Counted from the first letter of the stretch, positions 8,045 to 34,037 are shown. The stretch is DNA of 50,404 bases from Trueperaceae bacterium (GCA_020354625.1 CP070651.1:1948817-1999220), one strand, 5' to 3'. Numbers and translations are program-made. Notes: generated from the letters alone by a model not told the origin.

Positions 8045-8048
8045 GACT

Positions 8049-18523: not shown

Positions 18524-19381
18524 GTGAACAGGTTCAGGCGTACACAGGCCGGACGCGGACGGGGCTTCGCCCTCGCCTTTCCGGGTGTCTTTTGGCTGAT
18601 CGTCTTCTTCCTTTTGCCCCTGGTCTTTGTAGCCGTGGCCAGCTTCATGAGTCGTGGTCCGGGGGGCGTCCCCGTGATGCCTTTGACCATCGATCACTAC
18701 GAGCGCACCTTCGGCGTGTTCGCTCGTGTCACCTGGCGCACGGTGAGATTCGCAGGTCTCACCACTCTCTACTGCCTGCTTCTGGGCTACCCTCTGGCGT
18801 TTTTCATCAGCCGCCGCCTGCACCCCCGCACCCGCCTGATCTTGCTCTTTTTGGTCCTCTTGCCCTTCTGGACGAACTTTCTGGTGAGGACCTATGCGCT
18901 CATCACCATCTTGCAGCGGGAAGGCTTCTTGAACGGAATCCTTGAGCGCCTCGGCCTGATCCAAGACCCGATCCAATTTCTGTTCACACCGAGCGCCGTG
19001 ATCCTCGGCCTGGTCTACGGCTACCTGCCATTTATGGTTCTGCCCATCTACGCAGCCGCAGAACGCCTCGATCTACGGTTCGTCGAGGCCGCGTATGATC
19101 TCGGAGCGAACGATTGGAACGCGTTCTGGAGGGTGGTGTTCCCGTTGACCCTGCCGGGCGTAATCGCCGGCTCGATGTTGGTCTTCATCCCCGCCATCGG
19201 CGCGTTCGTCACCCCCGACCTGATGGGGGGCACCAAGGGGCTCATGATCGGGAATCTGGTCCAGTCGCAGTTTCGAGGGCGCGGCAACATCCCACTCGGG
19301 TCCGCCGTCTCGATGGTTCTGCTGGTCATCGTGTTCATAGGCGTGCTCGTCTACACGCGCTTCGGTAATCGGGAGGACTAA
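18524..19381 (+). CDS. potB: Polyamine-type ABC transporter permease, PotB family
   Basis: The 285-residue membrane protein has about six helices and the EAA loop AAYDLGANDWNAFWRVVFPLTLPG. The motif LLPFWTNFLVRTYA before the third helix is typical of PotB/YdcU permeases. It should form a channel with the PotC-type protein encoded 3 bp downstream. Start is GTG at 18524, with CGGGG upstream. The matching ATPase and binding-protein genes are not adjacent but about 11.5 kb away on the opposite strand (31761-34037). Spermidine/putrescine is the family's typical substrate; related amines or amino acids are possible. Confidence 0.9.
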   Translation: MNRFRRTQAGRGRGFALAFPGVFWLIVFFLLPLVFVAVASFMSRGPGGVPVMPLTIDHYERTFGVFARVTWRTVRFAGLTTLYCLLLGYPLAFFISRRLHPRTRLILLFLVLLPFWTNFLVRTYALITILQREGFLNGILERLGLIQDPIQFLFTPSAVILGLVYGYLPFMVLPIYAAAERLDLRFVEAAYDLGANDWNAFWRVVFPLTLPGVIAGSMLVFIPAIGAFVTPDLMGGTKGLMIGNLVQSQFRGRGNIPLGSAVSMVLLVIVFIGVLVYTRFGNRED

Positions 19382-19384
19382 GCG

Positions 19385-20299
19385 ATGGCCGCACCCCCGA
19401 TCCAGCCGAGAGAGCCTCTCCAGGGGCGCGTGAAACGCGACCTGGCCGTACGGCGCATCGGGCGACTAGGGCTCTGGCTCACCCCAGTCGTGACCTACTT
19501 TTTTCTCTGGGCACCGATCTTGGTACTCATCCTCTTCTCTTTCAACGATGCCGAGAGCGTCTCGGTGTGGCGCGGGTTCAGCACCAAGTGGTATGAGAAT
19601 ATCTTTCGCAACACCGTTTCCACCGATGCCATCGCCACCAACTTCCGCACCCAGCTCCTCATCAAGGCGGTGAGCAACTCGCTGATCGTGGCCTCCTTCG
19701 CGACCCTGATCTCGACCGTTATCGGCACCATGTTCGCCCTGGCCGTGGCTCGTGGGAACTTCCCAGGCAGAAAGCTGTTCGACGCCCTTTTCTACCTGCC
19801 GGTGGTCATCCCCGACATTACCCAGGGGGTAGCGCTGGCGGTCTTTTTCAAGATCGTCTTCGATTACATCCAGCTCTGGACGGGACAGCGAATGGTAAGC
19901 GGCTACGGCACCATCATCATCGCGCACGTCGCCTTCAACATTTCGTATGTCGCCATCGTGGTGCGGGCGCGCCTCGCCACCATGGACCCCACCCTCGAAG
20001 AGGCCGCCCGCGACCTGGGCGCCAACCACTTCCAGACGTTCTGGCGCATCACCTTCCCCATCCTCATGCCGGGTATCTTGGCCGGTGCCCTGCTGGCCCT
20101 CACGCTCTCCTTGGACGATTTCGTGGTGACCTTTTTTACCTCTGGCGTGGGCACGACCACGCTCCCGCTCTTCGTCTACGGCATGCTCAAACAGCGCGTC
20201 CCACCAGAGATCAACGCCATCAGCACGCTGATGATCACCGCCTCGATCCTGCTGGTCGGGTTGTCTTTGATCCTGCAACAGCGCGGGTCGCGCTCGTAA
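19385..20299 (+). CDS. potC: Polyamine-type ABC transporter permease, PotC family
   Basis: The 304-residue protein has about six hydrophobic helices, LFSFNDAESVSVWRGFSTKWYENIF near the N-terminus as in PotC/YdcV proteins, and the EAA loop AARDLGANHFQTFWRITFPILMPG. The motif LSLDDFVVTFF is characteristic of the family. The ribosome-binding site GGGAGG overlaps the end of potB, so the two are translated together. No terminator is evident after its stop, leaving open read-through into the following ABC importer cluster. Confidence 0.92.
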   Translation: MAAPPIQPREPLQGRVKRDLAVRRIGRLGLWLTPVVTYFFLWAPILVLILFSFNDAESVSVWRGFSTKWYENIFRNTVSTDAIATNFRTQLLIKAVSNSLIVASFATLISTVIGTMFALAVARGNFPGRKLFDALFYLPVVIPDITQGVALAVFFKIVFDYIQLWTGQRMVSGYGTIIIAHVAFNISYVAIVVRARLATMDPTLEEAARDLGANHFQTFWRITFPILMPGILAGALLALTLSLDDFVVTFFTSGVGTTTLPLFVYGMLKQRVPPEINAISTLMITASILLVGLSLILQQRGSRS

Positions 20300-20462
20300 G
20301 AACTGCCCTAGAAATAGCCAGAGAACGATCCGAATGCAACCGCTGCCTCGAGCTTACGGGCTTGGCTTATTGAGAATGTATAGAAGGATGTCTCTGAGTC
20401 AATATATAATGCTTAAGTTATCTCGCATCTCAAGATTGCTAGATGGCATCAAGGAGGGAAGT

Positions 20463-22034
20463 ATGCGCCTCATCGTTCGGATTTTAGCCTCTTGTTTCGT
20501 GCTTTTGGGCCTCAGTGGGATCAGCCTTGTCAGTGCTCAAGAGCTTGCCGAAGAGCAGGTTGTAAAACTGCTTTTGCGCGGTAAGAAGGATGTCGTTCAT
20601 CCTAGCGCCGAAGGGGGTGATGGTCGTCATTGGTTGCGAGTTACCATGCTGGCTCCTTTCAATCTTGATGCCCAAGGGAATATGGTTCCCAGTTTGGCGA
20701 GCGGTTTTGAAAAGAGCGCTGATGAGCTCGAGTACACCCTTTCCTTTTATGAAGACGCCGTATTTTCCAATGGCAAGCCGATCACAGCCTCAGCTGTCAA
20801 GGAGGCCTGGGAATGGGGCGTGCTGAGTGAAAACCTACCCGGTTGGGGCGGCCTCATGTCGATTTTTCGCAAGATTGAAGGCATGCAAGCAGTCAGCGAA
20901 GGAAGTTCAACCGATGCTGAAGGCCTGGTTGTGATCGATGACCACACGTTGAAAATCGTGCTGAACGAACGCGTCATCGGCTGGGAAAATGCCCTTGCCA
21001 GCTATATGGCGGGGGTCTTTGATGTCAGTGGTGACGTCGACGATATCGACTACTGGAGAAACCCCGTTGTTTCAGGCCCTTATCTGTTCAACTGGGACCC
21101 GGATACCGGCGCCATCACCCTCACCCAAAACCCCAACTGGTGGGGTGAGCCGGTAACGCTTGAGCGCATCGAGTTTCAAGTCGTTGAAGATCCACAAACT
21201 CGCCTGATCGCCTATGAAAACGGTGAAGTGGATGTTATCAAGGATCTAGGTGACTTATTGGATCAGATTAAGGTCAGTCACCCCGATGAACTCGTAGCCA
21301 TTCCAGGCGTTGGCTTTTTCTATCTCGCCTTTAACAACCAGCTCGAACCTACCAATGATCCTCATATCCGCCGTGCCTTGCTCCACGCGATTGACCGTCG
21401 GGCCGTGTTTCAGGCTCTCTTCCCCAATCACCCCCTCACCGATTCCATTTTGCAAACGGGCACGCAGTGCGCCAATCCCGAATTCCAAATTAGCTATGAC
21501 CCTGACATGGCGCGAACCGAATTGAGTCAATCAGGTTACGGAAACGCCGAAAATGTTCCCCCGATTCGCATTCAATACTGGGCTGACATCAATTTCTGGG
21601 GCCGTATTCTCACGGCGTACCAGCAGCAGTGGCAGGATAATTTGGGGCTAAGAGTTGAGCTCTTTGGTGTGGATAACTATGATACGCCAAACTTCAACCT
21701 CCAACGCGATAGCACGGCACCCACCATCAATGATCCTTCTGAAGCTCTTGGTGTCTTTGCTGCAAGCGACGGTGCCAATGCGGCTTATCAGAGTTTTGCC
21801 GCCTCACCTGAACTTGATGCGCTCCTTGATGAGGCCAATACCCTTGCCAGCACCGATACGGCACGTTGCGAGTTGTATCGCCAGATCGAAGAGCGGCTGT
21901 TGCTCGACGAAACCGCCCTGATCCCCCAAATCGGTATCCCTTATAACTGGGTTGTCAAACCCTATGTCCAGGGCTTGGAAACCTCGCTCAATCAAGACAT
22001 CAACTGGGATCAGATTTCCATTCTTGAACACTAA
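20463..22034 (+). CDS. Peptide/oligosaccharide-type ABC substrate-binding protein (family 5)
   Basis: This 523-residue protein starts with a Sec signal peptide (MRLIVRILASCFVLLGLSG, cleavage probably at VSA-QE) and has the family 5 (DppA/OppA-like) signatures: WRVTMLAPF-like opening, GSGPYLF-equivalent VVSGPYLFNW and the segment NDPHIRRALLHAIDRRAVFQALF. ATG at 20463 follows AAGGAGGG; a longer ORF upstream (20334) lacks these features. It starts the plus-strand 20.4-29.8 kb cluster, whose base composition is noticeably lower in G+C than the flanks. Family 5 members bind peptides, nickel or oligosaccharides; the propeller enzymes encoded downstream favour a glycoside. Confidence 0.93.
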   Translation: MRLIVRILASCFVLLGLSGISLVSAQELAEEQVVKLLLRGKKDVVHPSAEGGDGRHWLRVTMLAPFNLDAQGNMVPSLASGFEKSADELEYTLSFYEDAVFSNGKPITASAVKEAWEWGVLSENLPGWGGLMSIFRKIEGMQAVSEGSSTDAEGLVVIDDHTLKIVLNERVIGWENALASYMAGVFDVSGDVDDIDYWRNPVVSGPYLFNWDPDTGAITLTQNPNWWGEPVTLERIEFQVVEDPQTRLIAYENGEVDVIKDLGDLLDQIKVSHPDELVAIPGVGFFYLAFNNQLEPTNDPHIRRALLHAIDRRAVFQALFPNHPLTDSILQTGTQCANPEFQISYDPDMARTELSQSGYGNAENVPPIRIQYWADINFWGRILTAYQQQWQDNLGLRVELFGVDNYDTPNFNLQRDSTAPTINDPSEALGVFAASDGANAAYQSFAASPELDALLDEANTLASTDTARCELYRQIEERLLLDETALIPQIGIPYNWVVKPYVQGLETSLNQDINWDQISILEH

Positions 22035-22069
22035 AGATCCCATCGAATGGGGATAAATCCTTGTGGGCT

Positions 22070-22108
22070 CACTATGGTTAGTTTGCATTATGCAAACTAA
22101 CCATAGTG
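22070..22108 (+). promoter_or_regulatory. Perfect 39-bp palindrome after the binding-protein gene
   Basis: A 19-bp arm (CACTATGGTTAGTTTGCAT) is followed by one T and its exact complement. It starts 36 nt after the binding-protein stop codon. There is no T run after it. RNA from it would fold into a very stable hairpin able to stop 3' exonucleases or attenuate transcription into the permease genes; as DNA it could be a dyad for a regulator. Confidence 0.9.
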
Positions 22109-22130
22109 ATAGCTGTTCCGTGACGAATGT

Positions 22131-22174
22131 CAGCGGTAAACGCAGTGTTAAACGCAGTGTCGACATAACCGCTG
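22131..22174 (+). repeat. Exact 12-bp tandem repeat inside a 7-bp inverted repeat
   Basis: TAAACGCAGTGT occurs twice back to back (22137-22148 and 22149-22160). The pair is enclosed by CAGCGGT (22131-22137) and its complement ACCGCTG (22168-22174). The element lies in the 235-bp gap between the binding-protein gene and the first permease gene and looks like an operator or iteron-like protein-binding site. Confidence 0.7.
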
Positions 22175-22269
22175 CAGAACTCTATTGCCCGTACAGGATA
22201 CTCTGGCAGTCTTTCAGCATCATGTCACCAACACCGTAGAGATACGTAAGCTTAGAAAGCCTGGATCGG

Positions 22270-23211
22270 ATGTTGCAGTATTTCATCAAACGAATTGCTC
22301 AATTGGTGCCAACGGTTCTGGGGGTTATCTTCATCACCTTTTCCCTGGGGTATTTTGGACCCGGTGACCCACTAAAACATCAGCTTGGTGAACGACTCCC
22401 CAGCGATCCGGCTCAGTTGGAACGGCTCAGAAAACATTATGGACTCGATAGACCATTTCATGTCCAATTCTCTAGCTATATCGGCAAATTAGCGCGTGGG
22501 GATATGGGAATTTCGATTGTGGTACAAAGCAAGCGTCCCATCCGCGACATGTTGGGTAAAGCCCTGCGGACTTCTGTGCAACTGGGCGGTGCAGCGGCTC
22601 TGATCATTTTTGTACTCGGGATTCCCCTTGGCATCTTGGCTGCCTATCGAAAAAATACCTGGCTGGATTATGTCATCGTCTCTTTAGCCGCCCTCCTGCC
22701 CACGGTCCCCCCCTTTGTCCTTGCGCCTTTACTCCTTATCCTCTTCGTTCTTCAACTCAAACTCTTGCCGGCATCCTTTGGCTGGGCGGGTCTTTTCGAT
22801 TCGCGCGCCATCTTGCCACTGATCATTCTGGTGATTGGTCCTATGTTGATTGTCGTTCGCCAAACCCGTAACAGCATTATCGAGGCGCTTACGCAGGATT
22901 ATGTACGCACTGCGCGGTCAAAGGGTGTGCTCGAGCACAAGGTTTTGTCACGACACGTTCTAAAAAACGCCATGATCCCCGTGTTGACCAGTATGGGCTT
23001 TATCATCTCGGGACTGCTGACGGGGTCACTCTTTGTAGAAAGCATCTTCGGTATACCGGGCTTTGGCAAACTCATCTACGATGGATTAAGGGCTTATGAC
23101 TATCCGCTGATTCTCGGTACAACACTGGTAGGCACCCTCATTATCCTGGCCTCGAACTTGCTGGTTGATTTGCTTTACCCCTTTTTTGATCCACGGGTGC
23201 AGTTCGGCTGA
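22270..23211 (+). CDS. Peptide/oligosaccharide-type ABC permease, DppB family
   Basis: The 313-residue protein opens with MLQYFIKRIAQLVPTVLGVIFITF, the typical DppB/OppB first helix, and has the periplasmic segment HYGLDRPFHVQFSSYIGKLARGDMG and the EAA loop DYVRTARSKGVLEHKVLSRHVLKNAMIP. It forms the import channel with the DppC-type protein encoded next. Start is ATG at 22270 with only a weak ribosome-binding site. It is separated from the binding-protein gene by the palindrome and tandem repeat described above, suggesting lower or separately controlled expression. Confidence 0.94.
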   Translation: MLQYFIKRIAQLVPTVLGVIFITFSLGYFGPGDPLKHQLGERLPSDPAQLERLRKHYGLDRPFHVQFSSYIGKLARGDMGISIVVQSKRPIRDMLGKALRTSVQLGGAAALIIFVLGIPLGILAAYRKNTWLDYVIVSLAALLPTVPPFVLAPLLLILFVLQLKLLPASFGWAGLFDSRAILPLIILVIGPMLIVVRQTRNSIIEALTQDYVRTARSKGVLEHKVLSRHVLKNAMIPVLTSMGFIISGLLTGSLFVESIFGIPGFGKLIYDGLRAYDYPLILGTTLVGTLIILASNLLVDLLYPFFDPRVQFG

Positions 23212-23254
23212 TGACAAAACCCCCTGCAACAACCGCCAACCTTCTGTGGCCCAC

Positions 23255-24190
23255 ATGAAAACCCAGGCGCGCTCAAACAACCTCTGGCTCGACGCGTTTA
23301 AACGCCTGGTGCGCAATCGCATGTCGATGCTGGCCCTCATCATTATCGTACTTATTGTACTGATGGCTATCTTCGGTCCTCTGCTTTCCCCTTATGACTA
23401 TACTCGTCAGGATCTGCTAAACACCAACCAGGGGCCCAGCCTGGAGCACTGGTTTGGCACCGATGAATTAGGCCGAGATATGTTTAGCCGTATTCTCTGG
23501 GGCGCGCGCACCGCTTTGGCTGTCGCCTTCATCAGTCAGGGCATCAGCTTTGGCCTTGGCATTCTTTTAGGGTCGATCGCCGCCTATAGCGGCGGCTGGG
23601 TGGACAACGCCATTATGCGCTTCGCCGATATTCTCATGTCCTTCCCGCACCTGCTATTAGCCATTTTTGTCAGTGCTACGATTCGTCAACCGATCTTAAA
23701 AAGTTTCTACGGCGTTTATGACCGCACGGGCTGGGACATTTTTCGCAACACGGTTTTTATCGATTACTTTATCGTCTTTGGTGCCTTAGCCGCAGCTGGT
23801 TGGCCTTGGGCAGCACGGCTGATCCGTGGGCAAATACTTTCCTTGCGCGAGCAGGACTTTGTCGCGGCAGCTCAAGCCCTCGGAGCAAGGCACTGGCAAA
23901 TTATCAGGGCACATTTGGTGCCCAACGCCATCGGCCCCATTATTGTCAGCTTCACCGCCGGCTTTGGCGATGCCATGCTTGCCGAGTCTTCTTTAAGTTA
24001 TCTGGGCATCGGTATTCGTCCGCCTGGTGCCAGCTGGGGTGCCATGATTAGCGAAAGTTTGATTGGTTGGCGCTTGCATCCGCATCTGGTTGCCGTGCCC
24101 GGCTTGGTTCTGGCGATCTGTGTTTTTGCTTTCAACCTCTTTGGTGACGGCCTCAATGACGCCTTGAATCCGAGGAGCAAAGTGCGTTAA
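23255..24190 (+). CDS. Peptide/oligosaccharide-type ABC permease, DppC family
   Basis: The 311-residue protein has the DppC/OppC N-terminus (LWLDAFKRLVRNRMSMLALIIIVLIV), the segment LEHWFGTDELGRDMFSRILWGAR conserved in the family, and the EAA loop DFVAAAQALGARHWQIIRAHLVPNAIGP. ATG at 23255 is chosen because the family N-terminus begins there; no good Shine-Dalgarno sequence precedes it. It ends the transporter part of the cluster. The DppD/DppF-type ATPases that normally follow are missing here and are not encoded anywhere in this window. Confidence 0.93.
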   Translation: MKTQARSNNLWLDAFKRLVRNRMSMLALIIIVLIVLMAIFGPLLSPYDYTRQDLLNTNQGPSLEHWFGTDELGRDMFSRILWGARTALAVAFISQGISFGLGILLGSIAAYSGGWVDNAIMRFADILMSFPHLLLAIFVSATIRQPILKSFYGVYDRTGWDIFRNTVFIDYFIVFGALAAAGWPWAARLIRGQILSLREQDFVAAAQALGARHWQIIRAHLVPNAIGPIIVSFTAGFGDAMLAESSLSYLGIGIRPPGASWGAMISESLIGWRLHPHLVAVPGLVLAICVFAFNLFGDGLNDALNPRSKVR

Positions 24191-24256
24191 GCTTATGGCT
24201 CATCATCGCTTTACAGGTTGTAAATCACCCAATACGTACCGCCATGAGGGTCTGCT

Positions 24257-25654
24257 TTGAAGGCGATCTTATTTTTTGACGACTGGCTTGTAAGCCGGGC
24301 CCAGGGACTCGAGCGCCGCTGGTACGAACCCGTTTTTGTCAAGCAGCTTATCGATCGGTTTCACCCCGAATCGCTGGGCTACGGCGGCTATTACAGCGTA
24401 TTTTTCGACGAGCGTCTGGGAAGTTATGTCATGTATCTGGCTGTTTATCCACCAGAGGCTGACCCAGGAACGTTTGTTCTGCGCTTAACTTCGGCTGACC
24501 CTCATCATTGGGAAAACCCAAGCTTTGATGTTCAGGCATCACCAACCTGGAAGGGCTTTAAAAACGTCCTGGTCCACGAAAAGAACGACCGTTTCTGGCC
24601 GCTGGTCACGCGCTCATTGGCAAACACGGCTTTTGCCGATTGGGGCTATGTCGCCACTTGCATTCCAGCAGATACGCAAGATCAGCATAGCTACCTGGCA
24701 TTTTCAAAAGATGGCCTCCATTTTCAAATTGACTACGCTCACCCCTGGCATCAAGCACGCAGTGACACCTGGAGTGGAGTGACCTGGAATGCAAAGCGCG
24801 AACTCTTTCAGATCGCGACGCGCCCAGTCAATGTCGACAGGCGGGTTGCGACTATTACCACACAAGACTTCAAACACTTTTCCCCGCCCGAAACGATTCT
24901 GCAGCCCGATGCGCTCGACCCGCTAGGTAGCGAAATATATAGCATGCCGATATTTTCTTATGAAGACCTCTTTCTCGCCTTACCACACCTATATTTCACC
25001 GATCCTTTTGAAACCGCAACGCGCATCAAATGGCGTGGCCGCATTGAATCCCATCTGGCTTATAGCTACAACGGGTTCAACTGGTATCGGCCTCAACGCA
25101 AGGCTTTTATTGGCACCCAGGTTTATGGCTTGCAAGGTGGTGGGCAAAACTATGCCATTGAAATGCTACACCACGACCATAAGCTGCTCTTTTTCACCAG
25201 CGCTACCCCTGGCGAACATGCTGCCTATGAAGATTTACAGCGAGACGGTAAGTGTACCGCCGGGTTTTTTGCCCCCTTGCTCTACGAAATGCGTCTGGAC
25301 GGTTTTTGCTCCCTGAAAACCTCGAGCCGCGAAGGTATCTTGCAAACCAAATCCATCATTGCCAAGTCGGCTGAGCTTACGCTCAATCTTCGCACGACGG
25401 CCCATTCCAGCGTTCGGATTCAGATTCTTGATGGCGAAACGCTCGAACCACTCCCGGGCTACCTGCTTGAAGAAGCTATTCCCATAAGCGGCGACCATCT
25501 CTTTATTCGACCTCGCTGGCAGCAGCGCGCCGATCTGAGCGAACTCCTTGGCAAACCTATTCGCCTCGAGCTCTATTTATGTGAAGCCGAAGTCTTTGCC
25601 ATCCGACTGGAGCACCAGATTTTCATTGGCAGAACGCCGACTGAGGACCTCTAA
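24257..25654 (+). CDS. Glycoside-hydrolase-like five-bladed beta-propeller protein, first copy
   Basis: The 465-residue protein has no signal peptide. It shows repeated beta-propeller strand motifs of the GH32/GH43/GH130-like type (YYSVFFDERLGSYVMYL, SYLAFSKDGLHFQID, SHLAYSYNGFNWYRP) and a C-terminal beta-sandwich (LRTTAHSSVRIQILDGETLEPLPGY ... GKPIRLELYLCEAEVFAIRLE) shared with the protein at 26945-28450. I infer a cytoplasmic glycosidase or phosphorylase-like enzyme acting on the imported compound; catalytic acids cannot be assigned with certainty. Start is TTG at 24257, with GAGGG six bases upstream; no suitable ATG exists near it. Confidence 0.75.
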   Translation: MKAILFFDDWLVSRAQGLERRWYEPVFVKQLIDRFHPESLGYGGYYSVFFDERLGSYVMYLAVYPPEADPGTFVLRLTSADPHHWENPSFDVQASPTWKGFKNVLVHEKNDRFWPLVTRSLANTAFADWGYVATCIPADTQDQHSYLAFSKDGLHFQIDYAHPWHQARSDTWSGVTWNAKRELFQIATRPVNVDRRVATITTQDFKHFSPPETILQPDALDPLGSEIYSMPIFSYEDLFLALPHLYFTDPFETATRIKWRGRIESHLAYSYNGFNWYRPQRKAFIGTQVYGLQGGGQNYAIEMLHHDHKLLFFTSATPGEHAAYEDLQRDGKCTAGFFAPLLYEMRLDGFCSLKTSSREGILQTKSIIAKSAELTLNLRTTAHSSVRIQILDGETLEPLPGYLLEEAIPISGDHLFIRPRWQQRADLSELLGKPIRLELYLCEAEVFAIRLEHQIFIGRTPTEDL

Positions 25655-25665
25655 GGGGAGCATTT

Positions 25666-26826
25666 ATGCAGCTCGGCGACTTTCGCAAGCTCATCCCAGG
25701 CATCGACGACTGCAGCTATTTCCAGACCAGTGGCTTTTCACCCAAGCCTCAGCCTGTACTTGAGGAAGTCATTGCCTCTCTGCACTTACAAAGCCGAGGA
25801 CCTGCCATCGACGAAATCCATGAGGCCATGCAACGCCGTTCTGAAGCGGTACGAAGTCGACTCGCACAGCTGATTCAGGCTGATCCCGATGAAATCATGC
25901 TCAATGAAAATGCCACCATAGGCATCAACATCGTTGCGCAGGGAATCTCGTGGCGAGCGGGAGACAACCTCATCCTCAGCAATCACGAGCATCCAGGAAA
26001 CCGCATACCCTGGTATCAGCTCAAGACGCAAGGGCTTGAGTTGAGATTTTTGGAAGCCCACAATGACGCCGAACAAATGCTTGAAGACTTTGCCCACCTG
26101 CTCGATAGGCGTACCCGTTTGGTAAGTATCAGCCATGTATCACGGCGTAGCGGCTTGCGCTTTCCCGTGAACCGACTTATCGAACAGGCCCGGCAAAAAG
26201 GCATCCCCGTATTGCTTGACGGCGCTCAGGCCGTTGGGGCTATTCCTGTTGACGTCAAAGTTCTCAACTGTGACTTTTATACCCTGAGTGGTCATAAGTA
26301 TCTCATGGGCCCCCAAGCCACCGGCGCTTTATACGTGCGGCAGGATCGCATAGCCTGGTTAAAACCCAGCTGGCTGGGGTCGCATTCTCAGGAAATCATG
26401 GACATGATTGGCAACATGAAGCTGCATGATTCCGCCAGGCGCTTTGAATTCGGCACACGCAACCTAGCCGATCAGGCTGGTCTGGGCAAAGCCCTGGAAT
26501 TGTGGCAAAGTATCGGCTGGGACAAGGTATTCGCCTACCTCGCGGCATATACGCACACCCTTAAAATCGCCCTGCAAGACATTCCGGGACTCATCCTTGA
26601 AACCCCTTTGGCCTACTCCCAATCCTCTGGCATCGTCAGCTTTCACTTGCCGAATTTCAAAGCTGCCGGCATCCAAAAAAGCCTCTGGGACCGGGAGCGT
26701 GTCCTGGTTTCTACCCTGGAGGGCAATGACCACAGCATACGCGTATCAGCCCATGTTTTTAACACTGACGAAGATCGTGAACGCCTACTTGCAGGACTCG
26801 GGCGCATCCAAGCCCGTGGCTGTTAA
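25666..26826 (+). CDS. Class V PLP aminotransferase (cysteine-desulfurase/isopenicillin-N-epimerase-like)
   Basis: The 386-residue protein has the class V fold: NENATIGINIVAQGISWRAGDNLI, the cofactor aspartate region VLLDGAQAVGAIPVDV and the Schiff-base lysine Lys211 in LSGHKYLMGPQ. The C-terminal half (FEFGTRNLADQAGLGKALEL) fits epimerase- or lyase-like members better than IscS/SufS, and no catalytic cysteine loop is seen. The ATG follows AGGGGAG, 11 bp after the first propeller gene. Within the cluster it may remove or exchange an amino group on a sugar or amino acid released by the propeller enzymes. Confidence 0.9.
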   Translation: MQLGDFRKLIPGIDDCSYFQTSGFSPKPQPVLEEVIASLHLQSRGPAIDEIHEAMQRRSEAVRSRLAQLIQADPDEIMLNENATIGINIVAQGISWRAGDNLILSNHEHPGNRIPWYQLKTQGLELRFLEAHNDAEQMLEDFAHLLDRRTRLVSISHVSRRSGLRFPVNRLIEQARQKGIPVLLDGAQAVGAIPVDVKVLNCDFYTLSGHKYLMGPQATGALYVRQDRIAWLKPSWLGSHSQEIMDMIGNMKLHDSARRFEFGTRNLADQAGLGKALELWQSIGWDKVFAYLAAYTHTLKIALQDIPGLILETPLAYSQSSGIVSFHLPNFKAAGIQKSLWDRERVLVSTLEGNDHSIRVSAHVFNTDEDRERLLAGLGRIQARGC

Positions 26827-26842
26827 GGCGCGTTGCTTACCT

Positions 26843-26862
26843 GATTGTGCAGCTGCGCAATC
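26843..26862 (+). promoter_or_regulatory. 20-bp near-perfect palindrome upstream of the second propeller gene
   Basis: GATTGTGCAG followed directly by CTGCGCAATC forms a dyad in which nine of ten pairs are Watson-Crick and one is G-T. It lies in the 118-bp gap after the class V aminotransferase gene, about 80 nt before the next start. It could be a regulator site for the last two genes. Confidence 0.5.
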
Positions 26863-26944
26863 GATACCGAGCGGAGCGAGGTTCGATCGAGACATTGCGT
26901 GGGCGAATCTGTTATTCGGCAATCTGCCGTAACGAGGAGGAATG

Positions 26945-28450
26945 ATGGCATATACTGTCGGCAACAAAAAGCAGGTCTTTATCAACTGGGATCTAATCGA
27001 GCCGGGCTATGGGGTGGCCTGGCGTGGCGAGGAACCTGGAGGTCGTGAAGTCCCCTTTGGTGTCAGGTTAAAAACCCACCCACCGCGCCTCGAGGCCAAA
27101 CCACTCCTGGTAGCCGATCAGCCCTGGGAAACTTTTATCAATGTCTATGCCTCGATCTTTCAAGACGAAGACCGCTACCGCCTTTATTACGAGTGTTACT
27201 ACATCCCCGAACACGAAGAGCAAGATGACCTTAAAGCCCTACTGGCTTATGCTGAGTCGTTTGATGGAAAAACCTGGACCAAGCCCACGGTCGGCGCACT
27301 ACATTTTGAGGGCTCGCCCGACAACAATCTGGTATATGGGCTCGAGCTGGCCCGCTGGCGCAGCGCTCACGGCGCGTCGGTTTTTAAAGACCCTAATCCC
27401 GATGCCCCTGCTGCCGAGCGCTACAAGATGATCCATATGGGCAAAGAGCAAGAATTGCTTGCCGTCTTTGGTGCAATCTCGGCCGATGGGCTTCACTGGA
27501 AACCCCTTGAGCATCCCCTTATTCAAGACTATATGAGTGACACGCAATCCATCGTCTATTTTGACGCCGAACTCGGTAAATATCGCGGCTATTTTCGCGG
27601 GTGGCGCGGCTACGAACGCGGACGCTGGCACGGCCGCCGAGCCATCGCCTATGCTGAAACCGACGATTTTAGAAATTGGCCCAGACCAGAAATCATCGTC
27701 GAACCCGACCTTCACGATCCACCCGAGGTCGATATCTATACCAACAGCTATACGCCTTGGCCCGAAACCGATGCGCATCTGATGTTTCCGGCATTTTATC
27801 AGCGCACCCTTGATACAACGCAAGTACACCTTTTAAGCAGTCGCGACGGTAAAGTGTGGCATCGCCCCAGTCGCAACCCGATCATTGCTACCGACGATTT
27901 GGGGGCAGCCTGGGCAGGTGGGGCTTATGCGGGTTGTGGCCTGGTTTCGCTTGGTTCGATGGATGTTTCGTTACTCATCTCACCAGTCTGGCATACCCAC
28001 AACCAGCCTCATTATGCCTCTGGCAGAATGGCCAATCCTCCCCATCGGGGTATGCCCAGCTTGGCAACTTGGCGCAAGGATGGTTTTATGTCGCTCGAAG
28101 CAGAATCGCTGGGTTGCTTTACCACCGTCCCTCTCATTTTCAAAGGTCATCAGCTCGAGCTGAATGTCCTGACGCGCTTTGGTGGTGAAATCCGCGTTGA
28201 AGTCATTGACCCGACGTCCGATATTTATGTCGCTCAACCTCGCGCCAATGCCTACCTCGATTTTGAACAGAACAGCGACGCCATACCGGGCTATTCCTTT
28301 CGCGACTGCGATCCGATTACTGGCGATCACATCGAGCATATCGTCAGCTGGCAGGGAAAGTCTGATTTATCCCGCTGGGCCGGCAAACCGATACGCCTGC
28401 GTTTCTGGCTGAACCGAGCACACCTATATGCGCTTCGCTTCGGCCCCTAG
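26945..28450 (+). CDS. Glycoside-hydrolase-like beta-propeller protein, second copy
   Basis: The 501-residue protein has no signal peptide and shows propeller motifs in order (INVYASIFQDEDRYRLYYEC, LLAYAESFDGKTWTKP, FGAISADGLHWKPL, SIVYFDAELGKYRGYFRG, LLSSRDGKVWHRP) followed by a C-terminal beta-sandwich with IRVEVIDP, IPGYSFRDCDPITGDHIEHIV and SDLSRWAGKPIRLRFWL. The same tail is recognisable in the protein at 24257-25654, so they are distant paralogues. Two ATG codons precede the sequence; the second (26945) is better spaced from GAGGAGG. Likely a cytoplasmic glycosidase-like enzyme; the substrate is unknown. Confidence 0.77.
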   Translation: MAYTVGNKKQVFINWDLIEPGYGVAWRGEEPGGREVPFGVRLKTHPPRLEAKPLLVADQPWETFINVYASIFQDEDRYRLYYECYYIPEHEEQDDLKALLAYAESFDGKTWTKPTVGALHFEGSPDNNLVYGLELARWRSAHGASVFKDPNPDAPAAERYKMIHMGKEQELLAVFGAISADGLHWKPLEHPLIQDYMSDTQSIVYFDAELGKYRGYFRGWRGYERGRWHGRRAIAYAETDDFRNWPRPEIIVEPDLHDPPEVDIYTNSYTPWPETDAHLMFPAFYQRTLDTTQVHLLSSRDGKVWHRPSRNPIIATDDLGAAWAGGAYAGCGLVSLGSMDVSLLISPVWHTHNQPHYASGRMANPPHRGMPSLATWRKDGFMSLEAESLGCFTTVPLIFKGHQLELNVLTRFGGEIRVEVIDPTSDIYVAQPRANAYLDFEQNSDAIPGYSFRDCDPITGDHIEHIVSWQGKSDLSRWAGKPIRLRFWLNRAHLYALRFGP

Positions 28451-28466
28451 AGAAAGGTTGTCTGGC

Positions 28467-29816
28467 ATGAACACAAAAACCGAGAGCCGTTCGAGAGTCA
28501 AAACCTCGCTCGAGCTGTACCAGCAAGCAGGCAACCTCATCCCTGGCTGGACGCAGCTGATCAGTCGCCGGGCTGATCAATTCGCCTTCGGTGTCAGTCC
28601 TATCTATGCCCAGTCCGCCAAGGGCGCGCGCTTTAGAGATGTAGACGGCAACGACTATCTCGACTGGGTCAACGCCGTAGGGGCTGTCATTCTGGGACAT
28701 GCCGATGACGCGGTGGATAATGCCGTCATAGAGCAAATCCGCAAAGGGAGCATCCATACGGTCAACAGCCCCCTCGAGCTCGAGCTTGCCGAAGAGCTCA
28801 ACGCGACCATCCCCAGTTCGCAGATGGTGCGCTATACCAAAGCCGGGGGCGAAGCCTGTGCGGTGGCGGCGCGTATCGCCCGAGGCACCCGTGATCGCGA
28901 CCTCATCTTGTTCTGCGGCTATCACGGCTGGACCGACTGGTACCAGGCGGCCAACTTCGGCGCGGACCCCGAGAGCGGTGAATATCCCTTTGCTGGAATC
29001 GAACCGATCGGCATTCCCAAGGTTTTGGCCGGTACGGCTATCCCCTTTCGTTACGGTGACTTAGCCGCCCTCGAGCAGGCGCTCGAGCAGCACCAGGACA
29101 AAGTAGCTGCCATCATGATGGAACCCATGCGCAGTGAGTTGCCGCCACCAGGCTATCTTGAAGGCGTCAGAGAGCTAGCAACAAAACACGGCGTCATTTT
29201 GATTTTCGACGAGGTTTCCTGCGGCTTTCGCATGGCGATCGGTGGCGTGCAAGCCTATTTGGGTGTCACGCCCGATATGACGATCCTTTCCAAGTCGATG
29301 TCCAACGGCTATCCCATGGGGGCAGTGGTGGGTTCACGCGACGTAATGGAACCCGCCAAACACATGTTCATCTCGAGCCAGTACTGGAGCGATACGATCG
29401 GCATCGTCGCCTCCTTGGTCACCATTCGCGAGCTTAAAAGACGCGACGCGCAGAGCCGGTTCAAAAGCATCGGCGAAAAGCTGCGCCGTACCCTTGATCA
29501 GGCTATTGCCGAAGCGGGTGTTGCCGGAGCATGCACCGGTGTCTATGCCAATCCCGTACTCTCTCTGGAGATCCCCGAGGGTGTCGACGGACGCAAGGTC
29601 TCAACACTCTTCATTCAGGAGATGGCCAAACAGGGCATTCACTGTCAGCTCAGTTTTAAAGCGACGCTAGCACATCGTGATGAAGATATCGAACAAACGG
29701 GTATCGCCGCCTGCAAAGCGCTCACGGTGATCAAGCAAGGGCTTGAGTATGAGGCGCTAGATGACTTGCTCGAGGCCGACCTAAAGAAAGAACCCTTTCG
29801 GAGACAGGTGCGCTAA
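28467..29816 (+). CDS. Class III aminotransferase, glutamate-1-semialdehyde-aminomutase-like
   Basis: The 449-residue protein resembles GSA 2,1-aminomutase and related class III enzymes: GARFRDVDGNDYLDWVNAVGAVILGH near the N-terminus, the SQMVRYTKAGGEACAVAARIAR segment, VILIFDEVSCGFRM for the cofactor aspartate and Lys276 in LSKSMSNGYPMGAVVG for the Schiff base. A haem-biosynthesis role is unlikely in this setting; catabolic or biosynthetic aminotransferases on amino sugars share the same architecture. ATG at 28467 follows AGAAAGG. The gene appears more G+C-rich and richer in CTCGAG than the upstream part of the cluster. It ends the plus-strand run. Confidence 0.9.
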   Translation: MNTKTESRSRVKTSLELYQQAGNLIPGWTQLISRRADQFAFGVSPIYAQSAKGARFRDVDGNDYLDWVNAVGAVILGHADDAVDNAVIEQIRKGSIHTVNSPLELELAEELNATIPSSQMVRYTKAGGEACAVAARIARGTRDRDLILFCGYHGWTDWYQAANFGADPESGEYPFAGIEPIGIPKVLAGTAIPFRYGDLAALEQALEQHQDKVAAIMMEPMRSELPPPGYLEGVRELATKHGVILIFDEVSCGFRMAIGGVQAYLGVTPDMTILSKSMSNGYPMGAVVGSRDVMEPAKHMFISSQYWSDTIGIVASLVTIRELKRRDAQSRFKSIGEKLRRTLDQAIAEAGVAGACTGVYANPVLSLEIPEGVDGRKVSTLFIQEMAKQGIHCQLSFKATLAHRDEDIEQTGIAACKALTVIKQGLEYEALDDLLEADLKKEPFRRQVR

Positions 29817-29951
29817 GAACGAATCATGCAAGTGATCCAACGTGGCGCTGTAGCAAGCAGACGTGAAAAGAGCGGTGGCTCGAGCCTCTGCTCTCCCGGG
29901 GTTACCGCGCCCTGGTGGTTTGACGTGGACGAAGTCTAGCCGGGCGTTTAC

Positions 29952-29978
29952 AGAAGCCGGTCAACGTGATCGGCTTCT
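29952..29978. terminator. Hairpin between convergent genes (probable bidirectional terminator)
   Basis: AGAAGCCG (29952-29959) and CGGCTTCT (29971-29978) form an 8-bp stem with an 11-nt loop. It overlaps the stop codon of the minus-strand acetyltransferase and lies after the plus-strand aminotransferase. A T-rich tail on the plus strand (GATTCTTTAAAG) is weak. The rest of 29817-29951 shows no gene. Confidence 0.5.
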
Positions 29979-30606
29979 AGTCTGATTCTTTAAAGTCGGG
30001 GTTTTGCCATACGATCAAGGTCGCCCAGTTGTCCGAGGCCGGATCGTCAATATAGCCTTCCAGAAGACCCTTCACCTCGAAGCCGTTTCTGAGTTGGAAG
30101 CTGAGGGTGGCGTCGTAGAGATCCCCCCTCACAACGGCATCCACATAGTCGGGTAAAGAGAGGGTGTCCTCGACCGCCGGGTAGCCGGGCAACATTCCAC
30201 CGGCGACGATCCCGCGCCGGTTATAACGTCGCACGAGCTCTTTTCTGGCCCGGTAGAGCCTCGTACCTATGCTGCGGCCCCGGTAGTCCGGGTGCACGCT
30301 GATATCGCCCCCGTAGTACCAATCTCCGTCCGGATCGTGGTTGGTATAAAAGCCTTCGGCGATAATCTCCTTGAAGGTATGGTCGGGATGGGCGAGATCG
30401 AAGTCGGTAAAGAATCCGGAGCCGAGCCCCACCACACGCTCGCCGTCGAGCGCCACGAAATCCCCTTCGGGAAAGATTCGGCAGTGGCTCAAAAAGTGCT
30501 CGCTCGTCATCCGCTCGTGAGGGGCCAGTGTAGGAAAGCAATCGATCTGCAGCTGCTCGAGGGCTTCGGCGTAGCTCGGTTCGATCGTGACGATCCGAAT
30601 GCTCAT
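29977..30606 (-). CDS. GNAT-family N-acetyltransferase (paralogue of the one near 17.4 kb)
   Basis: The 209-residue protein has GNAT motif A in VHPDYRGRSIGTRLYRARKELVRR, preceded by NHDPDGDWYYGGDISV, and ends with WATLIVWQNPDF. These segments align with the acetyltransferase at 17366-18082. ATG at 30606 overlaps the TGA of the upstream C45-type gene (ATGA), so the two are translationally coupled; a longer upstream start is not needed. Its partner removes or transfers acyl groups, so acylation and deacylation of a common amine is a reasonable inference. Confidence 0.9.
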   Translation of the reverse strand: MSIRIVTIEPSYAEALEQLQIDCFPTLAPHERMTSEHFLSHCRIFPEGDFVALDGERVVGLGSGFFTDFDLAHPDHTFKEIIAEGFYTNHDPDGDWYYGGDISVHPDYRGRSIGTRLYRARKELVRRYNRRGIVAGGMLPGYPAVEDTLSLPDYVDAVVRGDLYDATLSFQLRNGFEVKGLLEGYIDDPASDNWATLIVWQNPDFKESD

Positions 30607-31697
30607 GACCTCAGACTGAAGTGTTCGTATTCGTTCTCGGTGGGCAAGCCCCAAACGGCCCAGAAATCTCCGGTGGTTGGGCGCATGATGGCCGCCCCAC
30701 AGGTTTCGACATGTCTGGGGGGTTCAGCTGTCACGCAGATGGTATCCCGGTCCCGGGTCAATTCCTGGAGATCCTCGACGGTCACTTGGTCTTTGGCCAA
30801 GAGCTCCCGGCCCCGGATCAGCCGTTTTTCAGAAGCGTGCTGCGAGGCCGGCTCCCGCCACCGCTCGAAGGCGTGCGTCGCGTCGACCAGACAGTGGTTG
30901 GTGTGGACGATCGGTGCGTCTTTGAGCTCGGTGACGTGATGCCGGCTGGACATCGCCTCGACGTTATAACCCCGTCCCCGATCGTCGAACAGCAGGTAGT
31001 TGTGTGCACCGGCGAGCCGGGCGCCGAGCAGGAACTCGAGCGCCGCCTCGAGATCCGTCTGCTGGAGGATCTTGCGCACCACAAAGGGCCAGGTTATACC
31101 GACCTGACCATCAGCCCCGAGCAGGTTGTTGATCCCTACGGCGATACCCGCCTCGTTCATACCGATCATGCCCAAGCAACCGACTGTGGTGAAGGCGAGG
31201 AAAGCCGGAGCGTTCCGTGGCTTGCCACGAAGCAACACCACATGTTTGGTGGAGCTGGCGTGCATATCCCAGGTCTGCCCGAAAAAGCCCCGGCCGGATT
31301 CTGCCCGATGATCCGGCACGATAAAGGCGGTACAGTTGTCGGCTCCGGCCGGCGAGGCCGCCTTGGGAGCATCGACCCCCGCATTGTAGACCGTATCGAT
31401 GAAGTCGGTGAACCCCCCCACGATGATGAGCTCAGAAGGGCTCAGGCCGGTCGCCTGTGCGAGGCCAGAGAGCTCCTCGACAAGGTCTGGGGCGTAGGTT
31501 CGATGTTCGTGCAAGCACGCCTCGCCGAGGCTTAGCACCTCTTGAGAGCTGAGACGGCGGCCGGTCCAGGCCTCCTCACCGCTCAGACGCACGCGTTCTT
31601 CGGCGTACTCACGGATGTCTTCGCGAAAGGCCTCGCCGTGCGCGTAACCCATTTCGAAGGGCGAACCATTTAGCTCGAGTAGTCGGATTCCCATCAT
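30603..31697 (-). CDS. C45-type acyltransferase/amidohydrolase (NTN hydrolase, isopenicillin-N acyltransferase-like)
   Basis: The 364-residue protein belongs to the C45/acyl-CoA:6-aminopenicillanate acyltransferase-like NTN-hydrolase group. The self-processing nucleophile should be Cys122 in GADNCTAFIV, followed by GQTWDMHASSTKHVVLLR and the conserved NEAGIAVGINNL. Family members include carcinine hydrolase and N-acyl-amine or N-acyl-amino-acid hydrolases. Start is placed at ATG 31697 with GTGAGG upstream; GTG at 31706 is also open. It lies between the polyamine-type ATPase gene and the acetyltransferase on the same strand, pointing to processing of imported amine conjugates. Confidence 0.85.
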   Translation of the reverse strand: MMGIRLLELNGSPFEMGYAHGEAFREDIREYAEERVRLSGEEAWTGRRLSSQEVLSLGEACLHEHRTYAPDLVEELSGLAQATGLSPSELIIVGGFTDFIDTVYNAGVDAPKAASPAGADNCTAFIVPDHRAESGRGFFGQTWDMHASSTKHVVLLRGKPRNAPAFLAFTTVGCLGMIGMNEAGIAVGINNLLGADGQVGITWPFVVRKILQQTDLEAALEFLLGARLAGAHNYLLFDDRGRGYNVEAMSSRHHVTELKDAPIVHTNHCLVDATHAFERWREPASQHASEKRLIRGRELLAKDQVTVEDLQELTRDRDTICVTAEPPRHVETCGAAIMRPTTGDFWAVWGLPTENEYEHFSLRS

Positions 31698-31760
31698 CGA
31701 CCTCACAAAGCGTTGCTACCGAACCAGTCTACCAGCTCGAGCCGGTTGGAGCGGGGCAGA

Positions 31761-32885
31761 TCAAGCCAGAATCGAAGCGTGTTCGTTGTGCCAAGAAACC
31801 CGAACCGCTTCTCCGACCCGCCGCATACCCTCAAAACCGTAGTGCTGGTTCTGGGCGCGCACGACGAGCACGATATCGGGGCCGACCCGTACGTGGTAGC
31901 GGGTATCGGTACCGATATAGAGCGCCTCCACCACGGTCCCTTCCAACTCGGTGACACCGGGTTGAGACGAACGACCCTCGACGGGCTCGTCTGAGACGAT
32001 GGAGAGTTTCTCGGGTCGAATCGCCACCGTCACGGCTTCCCCAGACGCCATGGCCGGATCACGGAGGACGGCCTCGAGACGGTGACCGCCGGTGAGTTCT
32101 ACGCGCCCGCTTGTGCCCGTTGCCTGCTGCAAGGTTCCGCTCAAGAAGTTGGTTTCACCGATGAAATCGGCGACGAAACGGCTTGTCGGACGCTCGTAGA
32201 TGTCATCAGGGGCACCGACTTGCAACACGTTTCCCTCATTCATCACGGCGATCCGGTCGGCCATGGTGATGGCCTCTTCCTGATCGTGGGTGACGTAGAT
32301 AAAGGTGATCCCGACCCTTTGCTGCAAGGATTTGAGTTCAAACTGCATGGCCTTGCGTAACTTCAGATCGAGCGCCCCCAACGGCTCGTCGAGCAAGAGA
32401 ACCGCGGGGTGATTGACCAGCGCGCGCGCCAGAGCGACCCGTTGCCTCTGCCCCCCCGAGAGTTGATGGGGCCTACGTCCGGCAGCCTGCGGAAGCCTCA
32501 CCATCTCGAGCGCTTCCAGCGCCCTCCGCCGCGCCTCCGCATGGTCGATCCCAGACATCTTCAACCCGAAGGTGACGTTGTGGAGGACCGACATGTGCGG
32601 AAACAACGCGTAGTCTTGGAAGACGGTGTTGACGGGGCGATGAAACGAGGGGATGCCCTCGACAGAGCGTCCCCTCAAGAGAATCTCGCCAGAAGTGGGC
32701 GTCTCGAACCCGGCGATAGACCGAAGCGTGGTGGTCTTTCCGCAACCGCTCGGACCCAAGAGGGCGAAGAACTCCCCCTCTTCGATGCGGAGCGAGATGT
32801 CGTCGACTGCCCTGACAATCTGATGCTGGCGCAGGTCGGTGAACTCCTTGACCAGGTTCTTGACCTCGACTGCAGGCACGTTCAT
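31761..32885 (-). CDS. potA: Polyamine-type ABC transporter ATP-binding protein, PotA family
   Basis: The 374-residue protein has the ABC ATPase motifs: Walker A GPSGCGKTT, Q-loop NTVFQDYALFPHMSV, signature LSGGQRQRVALARAL, Walker B VLLLDEPLGALD and the switch histidine in YVTHDQEEA. A C-terminal TOBE-type regulatory region follows (VTVAIRPEKLSI). It should energise the PotB/PotC-type permeases encoded 11.5 kb away. ATG at 32885 is preferred; a GTG 33 bases upstream (32918) is an alternative. It lies about 75 bp downstream of the binding-protein gene. Confidence 0.94.
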   Translation of the reverse strand: MNVPAVEVKNLVKEFTDLRQHQIVRAVDDISLRIEEGEFFALLGPSGCGKTTTLRSIAGFETPTSGEILLRGRSVEGIPSFHRPVNTVFQDYALFPHMSVLHNVTFGLKMSGIDHAEARRRALEALEMVRLPQAAGRRPHQLSGGQRQRVALARALVNHPAVLLLDEPLGALDLKLRKAMQFELKSLQQRVGITFIYVTHDQEEAITMADRIAVMNEGNVLQVGAPDDIYERPTSRFVADFIGETNFLSGTLQQATGTSGRVELTGGHRLEAVLRDPAMASGEAVTVAIRPEKLSIVSDEPVEGRSSQPGVTELEGTVVEALYIGTDTRYHVRVGPDIVLVVRAQNQHYGFEGMRRVGEAVRVSWHNEHASILA

Positions 32886-32960
32886 GCCCGGGGTCCTCGC
32901 TTCGTCCTCTCCATGCACGCCCCGTCTGCTCCGTCCGATTACAAGCGACCCAGCGTCAAC

Positions 32961-34037
32961 TCACTGACCCACGAAGATGCGAACTTCATCCCAGGCATCG
33001 TTGTAGAGCTGCTCTAGCGCCGAGTCCTGCACGATGAAGAAGAGGCCGGCTTGCGTCTCTGCCCCTGGGTAGATACCCGGGTCCTCGAGAAGCTCGGCCT
33101 CGATCAGACCGGCCTCGATCGCCGCCTGGTTGGGCGAGCCGTAGGCCGTGTAATTGCTGATGTCTGCTCCGACTTGTGCGTCGAGGACGTAGTCGATAAA
33201 CACCTCCGCCAACGCTTTGTTGGGCGCATCGATCGGGATGCCGAGATTGTCTACCCAGAAGTTGGTCCCCTCGTCGGGAATCACGTAGGCGTAGTCGTCA
33301 CACTCACACTCGTCCATGATCTGGAAGATATCGCCCGAGTACTCGACCACGATGTCCGCCTCGCCCCGGAGCAGGACCTCTTGGCCGTCATCCTGATTGA
33401 GGTAGACTACGTTCCCGCCATTTTCAACCAGATAATCCCTGGCAGCAGCGATCTCGTCCGGATCACCGGTGTTGGGGTCGAAGCCGAGCATCAACAGGGC
33501 GATGCCCATGGTGGCCCGCACATCCTCGATCCACGACACCGGCCCGTCGTACTCGAACATTTCGGTCCAACTGGTGATCTCCATGCCCACCGTACTGGTG
33601 TTATAGCCGATCCCGATCGTCCCCCACTGGTAGGGAACCGTGAAGGTGTTGTCGGCATCGAAGTCGAGGCCTTTGAAGGTCGGGTCGACGTTGGCCATGT
33701 TGGGGATGTTTTCGTAATCCAAGGGCTCGAGCAAACCCTCTTCCACCATCAGGTAGACGACCGAACCGCTCGGGACGACGATGTCGTAACCGGGGTTCCC
33801 TTGGCGAATGCGAGCGAGCATATCGTCGTCAGAAGGATAGGTGTCGTAGACAACCGAAACGCCACAGAGCTCCTCGAAGTTACCGATGGTGTCTTCTGCA
33901 ATGTAGGTCGTCCAGTTGTAGACGCTGAGCGTCTGACCTTCAAACCCTGCCGGACACGTCCAGGAGGAGTCCTGGGCTACCGCCATACCACCCATTGCGA
34001 GCAGCGCTATGAGGATCACGATCAACTCTTTTCTCAT
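32961..34037 (-). CDS. potD: Polyamine-type ABC substrate-binding protein, PotD family
   Basis: The 358-residue protein has a Sec signal peptide (MRKELIVILIALLAMGGMAVAQ) and the PotD/PotF opening LSVYNWTTYIAEDTIGNFEE with YDTYPSDDDMLARI and YDIVVPSGSVVYLMVEEGLLEPLD. ATG at 34037 follows AAGGGAG; the ORF could extend to 34103 but without a ribosome-binding site. The mature protein has cysteines in SWTCPAG, ELCGV and ECECDDY that might form disulfides. It is the first gene of the potD-potA-C45-GNAT unit. The 252 bp upstream to the MFS gene contain no supportable gene. Confidence 0.94.
   Translation of the reverse strand: MRKELIVILIALLAMGGMAVAQDSSWTCPAGFEGQTLSVYNWTTYIAEDTIGNFEELCGVSVVYDTYPSDDDMLARIRQGNPGYDIVVPSGSVVYLMVEEGLLEPLDYENIPNMANVDPTFKGLDFDADNTFTVPYQWGTIGIGYNTSTVGMEITSWTEMFEYDGPVSWIEDVRATMGIALLMLGFDPNTGDPDEIAAARDYLVENGGNVVYLNQDDGQEVLLRGEADIVVEYSGDIFQIMDECECDDYAYVIPDEGTNFWVDNLGIPIDAPNKALAEVFIDYVLDAQVGADISNYTAYGSPNQAAIEAGLIEAELLEDPGIYPGAETQAGLFFIVQDSALEQLYNDAWDEVRIFVGQ

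What the first reader, a model, noticed from the sequence alone, without database searches (positions are those of the whole stretch)
20463..29816. Candidate undescribed glycoside/amino-compound uptake and processing cluster
One strand carries a family 5 binding protein, DppB and DppC permeases, two related signal-less beta-propeller glycoside-hydrolase-like proteins, a class V aminotransferase and a class III aminotransferase, in tandem. Two propellers with a shared C-terminal sandwich alternating with two different PLP enzymes is not a pathway I can name. Since the propeller proteins lack signal peptides, the substrate would enter intact through the ABC importer, be cut inside, and the amino-containing product be transaminated or epimerised.
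Basis: partly seen in the sequence, partly recalled or inferred. Interest (0 to 1): 0.75.

Follow-up and report, generated by a model that had tools for sequence, protein, structure and literature searches.

The report
Borrowed sugar-amine uptake and breakdown cluster
A Deinococcota bacterium of the Truepera type appears to have acquired from Chloroflexi a seven-gene set that imports a small, probably sugar-linked, amino compound, modifies it with two unstudied propeller enzymes and strips its nitrogen; the genes travel together across Chloroflexi but their substrate is unknown.

Summary
In detail: SBP_bac_5, OppB- and OppC-like permeases, propeller P1, class V aminotransferase (ATV), propeller P2 and class III aminotransferase (ATIII) lie in tandem at 20463-29816. 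Both propellers model as five-bladed propellers with a C-terminal sandwich. Chloroflexi neighbours add a sialidase-like protein, a D-amino-acid-oxidase-type flavoenzyme, pyruvate aldolases, dehydrogenases, an amidohydrolase and an M81 protein; the window genome carries relatives of four of these about 0.65 Mb away. The cluster is a horizontal acquisition: GC3 0.56-0.67 against 0.74-0.85 around it, ATIII in 1 of 111 genomes of its phylum, and a relative with the same flanks lacks it. Best reading: import, intracellular cutting by the propellers, deamination by PLP/FAD enzymes, then retro-aldol cleavage to pyruvate and an aldehyde. Substrate and propeller chemistry are not shown. Novelty: an undescribed, conserved pathway of known enzyme classes plus an uncharacterised propeller family.

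The parts
20463..22034 (+). SBP: secreted family-5 solute-binding protein of an Opp/Dpp-type ABC importer
   Evidence: Pfam SBP_bac_5 E 7.7e-56; nearest PDB chains are OppA/MppA at E about 1e-30; 54-56% to the SBP of the Chloroflexi operons
22270..23211 (+). OppB-like permease
   Evidence: BPD_transp_1 E 2.4e-40; 68-69% to Chloroflexi orthologs
23252..24190 (+). OppC-like permease
   Evidence: BPD_transp_1 and OppC_N; 71-75% to Chloroflexi orthologs
24257..25654 (+). P1: cytosolic five-bladed propeller plus C-terminal beta-sandwich, glycan-active-like, uncharacterised family
   Evidence: no Pfam, NCBIfam or PDB sequence hit; model pLDDT 92.7; fold matches GH137, GH32, GH130, 6n1a; 44-63% orthologs in Chloroflexi
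25666..26826 (+). ATV: class V aminotransferase fold, cysteine-desulfurase/epimerase-like, Lys211 kept, no Cys in the desulfurase loop
   Evidence: Aminotran_5 E 5.2e-66; alignment to SufS; residues; 56-60% orthologs in 19 of 396 Anaerolineae
26942..28450 (+). P2: paralogous five-bladed propeller plus sandwich
   Evidence: 29% to P1; model pLDDT 87.8; fold matches GH137, GH130; 62% orthologs in Chloroflexi, about 50% in Acidobacteria
28467..29816 (+). ATIII: class III aminotransferase of the GSAM-like branch, Lys276 kept
   Evidence: Aminotran_3 E 2.1e-43; alignment to GSAM; 65-73% orthologs in 33 of 396 Anaerolineae and in no other of 111 genomes of the phylum at E 1e-60
20300..29976 (.). inferred extent of the horizontally acquired insert between potC (ends 20299) and a GNAT gene (29977-30609, - strand)
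   Evidence: GC3 0.56-0.67 inside, 0.74-0.85 in flanking genes; relative G016 (L201) keeps the flanks with about 0.9 kb between them

Best explanation
The cluster is the import, cutting and deamination part of a catabolic route for a small glycoconjugate with an amino group (amino sugar, amino-sugar acid, or sugar-linked amino acid), acquired from Chloroflexi. The binding protein captures the compound outside and the two permeases bring it in, using an ATPase encoded elsewhere. In the cytosol P1 and P2 act on the glycan part, most likely cutting it. ATIII and ATV, with a D-amino-acid-oxidase-type flavoenzyme from a second locus, remove or move the amino group to give a keto compound. An HpcH-type pyruvate aldolase, replaced or accompanied by an NAL/DHDPS-type one in some Chloroflexi, splits the resulting 2-keto-3-deoxy acid into pyruvate and an aldehyde, which ADH/AKR-type enzymes handle. 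Shown: gene content, conservation, folds, horizontal acquisition, co-occurrence, partners in the same genome. Inferred: every reaction step and the substrate class.
For: Contiguous or contig-split orthologous operon in three marine Chloroflexi MAGs, with NAL-like aldolase, sialidase-like protein and D-amino-acid-oxidase-type flavoenzyme interleaved. Co-occurrence in 396 Anaerolineae: P1-ATIII 17/18, P1-ATV 15/18, ATV-ATIII 19/19, Fisher p 7e-20 to 7e-24, uncorrected for relatedness. ATIII neighbourhoods hold AMH2 in 7 lineage groups, sialidase-like in 6, HpcH, ADH and the two permeases in 5, flavoenzyme in 4, though the counts include the second window-genome locus, which has no ATIII. Second locus of the window genome at C1 2.631-2.643 Mb with BhcC-like PLP enzyme 56%, M81 58%, flavoenzyme 52%, HpcH 67%, AMH2 65%. 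Propeller folds. Insertion evidence and ATIII tree nesting the window among Chloroflexi, 98/90.
Against: No protein of the set has a characterised close relative, so all substrate and reaction steps are inferred. No homolog of the Chloroflexi sialidase-like protein was found in the window genome. Partner genes vary between lineages (NAL in some, HpcH in others), and P2 at about 50% in Acidobacteria sits without these partners. No ATPase in the cluster. The genomes counted are related, so p-values overstate independence. The window's ATIII lies on a long branch.
Confidence: 0.45

Rival explanations
1. The real substrate is a modified or D-amino acid or peptide, not a sugar: the Opp-type importer brings in a peptide-like compound, M81 and amidohydrolase open it, and the PLP and FAD enzymes deaminate D- or beta-amino acids; the propellers only trim a sugar decoration or bind.
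For: SBP is closest to OppA/MppA; partners include an M81/MlrC-like protein, a BhcC-like (3-hydroxy-D-aspartate aldolase type) PLP enzyme, a D-amino-acid-oxidase-fold flavoenzyme and a class IV aminotransferase next to HpcH in the second locus.
Against: Two or three glycan-type propellers per operon plus NAL/HpcH aldolases and sugar-type AKR, ADH and GFO oxidoreductases point to a polyhydroxylated substrate.
Confidence: 0.25
2. The propellers are not hydrolases but do other chemistry on the five-bladed scaffold, such as phosphorolysis (GH130-like) or metal-dependent N-deacetylation (as in the F. plautii GalNAc deacetylase), feeding the same deamination route.
For: Profile hits to 6n1a (E 1e-10) and to beta-1,2-mannobiose phosphorylase (E 8e-10 with the P2 alignment) rank above the GH32 enzymes; fold matches include both; cytosolic location suits phosphorolysis.
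Against: The 6n1a profile alignment is out of register, matching blade repeats rather than a colinear active site; no family cut-off is met.
Confidence: 0.2
3. Biosynthesis or remodelling of an amino-sugar-containing surface glycan rather than catabolism.
For: Class III and V aminotransferases also occur in sugar biosynthesis (background knowledge); ATIII has distant PDB matches to gentamicin C-6' aminotransferases and neamine transaminase NeoN.
Against: No glycosyltransferase, nucleotidyltransferase or NDP-sugar enzyme was recognised among the annotated neighbours; an importer with a binding protein and retro-aldolases indicates breakdown.
Confidence: 0.05
4. The genes are a chance, functionally unlinked arrival on one insert.
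For: Clear horizontal acquisition into one lineage.
Against: Orthologous set in three Chloroflexi MAGs and strong co-occurrence with P1, ATV and ATIII on separate contigs or distant loci in others.
Confidence: 0.05

Closest known systems
Bacterial sialic acid utilisation clusters (SatABCD-type ABC importer, NAL aldolase, sialidase, NanOx-type oxidoreductase; PMC10017367)
   Same: ABC importer with a binding protein (SatA structure 5z99 is in the SBP hit list), an NAL-like aldolase and a sialidase-like propeller in the Chloroflexi form, GFO-type oxidoreductases nearby
   Different: NAL hit is below the nanA cut-off; in the alignment to 4x47 the residue opposite the FRIP arginine is not arginine in the sialidase-like protein; two aminotransferases, flavoenzyme and two extra propellers have no counterpart; SatA is a weak SBP hit
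GH137 / GH130 / GH32 / GH43 five-bladed propeller enzymes
   Same: Five-bladed propeller fold, Foldseek probability 1.00
   Different: 8-17% identity in the structural alignments, below every family cut-off, extra C-terminal sandwich with its own conserved motifs
F. plautii N-acetylgalactosamine deacetylase (6n1a)
   Same: best PDB sequence profile match for both propellers, E about 1e-10, same fold class
   Different: alignment not colinear; metal site not demonstrated
Non-phosphorylative sugar-acid routes (dehydrogenase, lactonase-type amidohydrolase, enolase-family dehydratase, HpcH/KDG-type aldolase)
   Same: HpcH aldolase, ADH/AKR, amidohydrolase PF04909 and in one locus an enolase-family protein gather around ATIII
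   Different: adds amino-group removal by ATIII, ATV and a flavoenzyme and intracellular propellers; specificities unknown

Membership tests
SBP_bac_5 / Opp-Dpp-type ABC importer | SBP_bac_5 and BPD_transp_1 domains over curated cut-off | tested here: met
   190.2 bits vs 32.4; 138.7 and 129.8 vs 26.4
SBP_bac_5 / Opp-Dpp-type ABC importer | named Dpp, Opp, Nik or Gsi equivalog | tested here: not met
   all NCBIfam equivalogs below cut-off, e.g. DppA 32.7 vs 1005, Opp2B 249.5 vs 350
GH32 glycoside hydrolases (P2) | Pfam Glyco_hydro_32N over cut-off | tested here: not met
   18.6 vs 22.1 bits; P1 no hit
GH130 phosphorylases (P2) | NCBIfam mannobiose phosphorylase equivalog | tested here: not met
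   22.9 vs 450 bits
Five-bladed propeller superfamily (P1, P2) | five-bladed propeller fold | tested here: met
   confident models; Foldseek E down to 1e-9 (P1) and 8e-13 (P2)
Five-bladed propeller superfamily (P1, P2) | catalytic residues in a central pocket | not testable with these tools
   no model coordinates available; only sequence conservation: D170/D200, R189/R219, R195/R233, Y228/Y266, R278/R308 and H321/H353 are kept across most of the 46-50 sequences
SufS/IscS cysteine desulfurase (ATV) | catalytic loop cysteine and equivalog score | tested here: not met
   no Cys in the loop, Cys only at 16, 202, 386; sufS 201 vs 475 bits
Class V aminotransferase fold (ATV) | Aminotran_5 and PLP lysine | tested here: met
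   223.6 bits vs 21.5; SGHK Lys211
Glutamate-1-semialdehyde aminomutase HemL (ATIII) | hemL equivalog cut-off | tested here: not met
   231 vs 527 bits
Class III aminotransferase (ATIII) | Aminotran_3 and PLP lysine | tested here: met
   149 bits vs 30.5; Lys276 aligned with the GSAM lysine
GH33 sialidase (partner protein in Chloroflexi) | FRIP arginine | tested here: inconclusive
   profile matches sialidases at E down to 3e-8, but in the alignment to 4x47 no arginine stands opposite the FRIP arginine; alignment only
N-acetylneuraminate lyase (partner in Chloroflexi) | nanA equivalog cut-off | tested here: not met
   207 vs 382 (nanA), 258 vs 281 (PRK04147)

The most novel reading that the evidence does not exclude
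P1 and P2 found a new enzyme family on the five-bladed propeller scaffold, with a conserved Asp/three-Arg/Tyr/His set suited to an anionic sugar, and work with a class III and a class V PLP enzyme in an undescribed pathway for an acidic amino-sugar glycoside that is widespread in marine Chloroflexi and has moved by horizontal transfer into Deinococcota, where its parts are split over two loci.
Probability: 0.3. Interest if true: 0.7.

Novelty: new variant of a known kind. Interest (0 to 1): 0.5.

Why it matters
Marine and sponge-associated Chloroflexi are abundant, and what they eat is poorly known (background knowledge). A conserved set of importer, propellers and deaminases with no family assignment for its key enzymes marks a likely unrecognised nitrogen-containing substrate. 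The propeller family is spread over many phyla and no solved member was found by sequence, so one characterised enzyme would annotate many genes.

Tried and rejected
A single-sequence scan of genome contigs with P1 found nothing; the four-sequence alignment found 47 loci. Named Dpp/Opp identity rejected on NCBIfam cut-offs. Cysteine desulfurase rejected for ATV and GSAM for ATIII. Canonical sialic acid catabolism considered because of the NAL-like and sialidase-like partners, kept only as a relative. Deacetylase kinship to 6n1a weakened because the alignment is out of register. Chance clustering rejected by co-occurrence. Literature searches for a described system of this make-up returned nothing relevant; the library holds only open-licence papers. 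Pocket mapping on the models was not possible, since no coordinates are given.

Full report
What is there. SBP has a signal peptide; P1, ATV, P2 and ATIII show none by inspection. P1 has no Pfam, NCBIfam or PDB sequence match, and P2 only a sub-threshold GH32 match. They are paralogs (29%, E 1e-23).

Fold. With alignments of 46 and 50 relatives AlphaFold2 gave confident models. The best solved folds are GH137 BT_0996, GH130 phosphorylases, GH32, GH43 and the F. plautii GalNAc deacetylase. Conserved across most relatives are P1 D170, R189, R195, Y228, R278 and H321 (P2 D200, R219, R233, Y266, R308, H353). This suggests a functional site rich in arginine, but no coordinates were available to place it in a pocket.

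Host and origin. The window is G000:C1:1948817-1999220. The 16S fragment, the phylum size and a same-family genome whose single contig has 3,260,398 bases (from memory the size of Truepera radiovictrix) point to Trueperaceae, Deinococcota; this assignment is inference. P2 has no match in the phylum at E 1e-10 outside G000 except one distant protein in G003, and ATIII none at E 1e-60 outside G000. GC3 falls to 0.56-0.67 inside the cluster against 0.74-0.85 in the flanking genes. Relative G016 (L201) has the same flanks, PotD-PotA-C45-GNAT facing PotC-PotB, with about 0.9 kb between them, and G029 (L199) has other genes in that gap. In the ATIII tree the window nests among Chloroflexi (98/90), on a long branch.

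Conservation. Two marine Anaerolineaceae MAGs (L012/L096, L041/L095) carry SBP-PermB-PermC-ATIII-SIA-P1-ATV-DAO-P2 contiguously with a divergent NAL-like aldolase and AKR, and in L012 an M81 gene; a third genome (L117 and L013) shows the same order on split contigs as far as they reach. Identities to the window are 54-75%. In 396 Anaerolineae genomes P1 orthologs are in 18, ATV in 19, ATIII in 33; overlaps are 17 (P1-ATIII), 15 (P1-ATV), 19 (ATV-ATIII) and 15 for all three, Fisher p between 7e-20 and 7e-24. Many of these genomes are close relatives, so the p-values overstate the evidence, but ATIII neighbourhoods fall in 15 lineage groups at 85% identity. Across those, plus the second window-genome locus, the commonest partners are AMH2 (PF04909), the sialidase-like protein, HpcH, ADH, the permeases, AKR and DAO. 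In several Caldilineaceae-like genomes ATV lies roughly 15-30 kb from ATIII on the same contig.

Second locus. A concatenated query found strong relatives of M81, DAO, HpcH and AMH2 together at C1 2.634-2.641 Mb. Reading the region adds a BhcC-like PLP enzyme, a GntR regulator, a class IV aminotransferase, an SDR, a DHDPS-like protein and a PhzF-like gene (the last by eye). This locus has host-like GC (about 0.58-0.68) and no ATIII or sialidase-like gene; the latter was not found in the genome. It is a plausible source of the missing steps, not a demonstrated one.

Mechanism. Import through an Opp/Dpp-type system, intracellular action of P1 and P2, deamination by ATIII, ATV and DAO, retro-aldol cleavage by HpcH or NAL-type aldolases. 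The NAL/HpcH exchange between lineages suggests that both make pyruvate from a 4-hydroxy-2-oxo acid, which is the common chemistry of these aldolase families (established knowledge). All reaction steps are inference. ATV lacks the desulfurase cysteine and ATIII falls below the GSAM cut-off, so neither housekeeping role fits.

Verdict. An ordinary kind of locus (importer plus catabolic enzymes) with an unordinary content: an unnamed, conserved, horizontally mobile pathway with an uncharacterised propeller family at its core.

Noticed in passing
18524-20299 and 29977-34103; L201, L199: The insert sits between polyamine-type transport genes: PotB-PotC on one side and GNAT-C45-PotA-PotD on the opposite strand on the other. 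The same order without the insert exists in a relative, and another relative has different genes in the gap, so the gap looks like a variable site.
   Followed up: partly
G000:C1:2629000-2644000 (L189): Second catabolic locus with BhcC-like PLP enzyme, M81, D-amino-acid-oxidase-type enzyme, HpcH aldolase, class IV aminotransferase and amidohydrolase.
   Followed up: partly
L101-L113: Caldilineaceae-like genomes hold several P1/P2-type propeller paralogs in one locus with an Opp-type transporter, LLM-class and PhyH-type genes.
   Followed up: no
L031, L036, L038, L046: P2 orthologs at about 50% in Acidobacteria/Terriglobia MAGs without the aminotransferases, suggesting P2 can serve another pathway.
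   Followed up: no
4857-10558: Another - strand set in the window: two permeases, an SBP_bac_1 binding protein, a lyase of the argininosuccinate-lyase superfamily and an Amidohydro_2 protein.
   Followed up: no
15062-16033: Ethylbenzene-dehydrogenase-type heme domain protein (PF09459) alone between unrelated genes.
   Followed up: no
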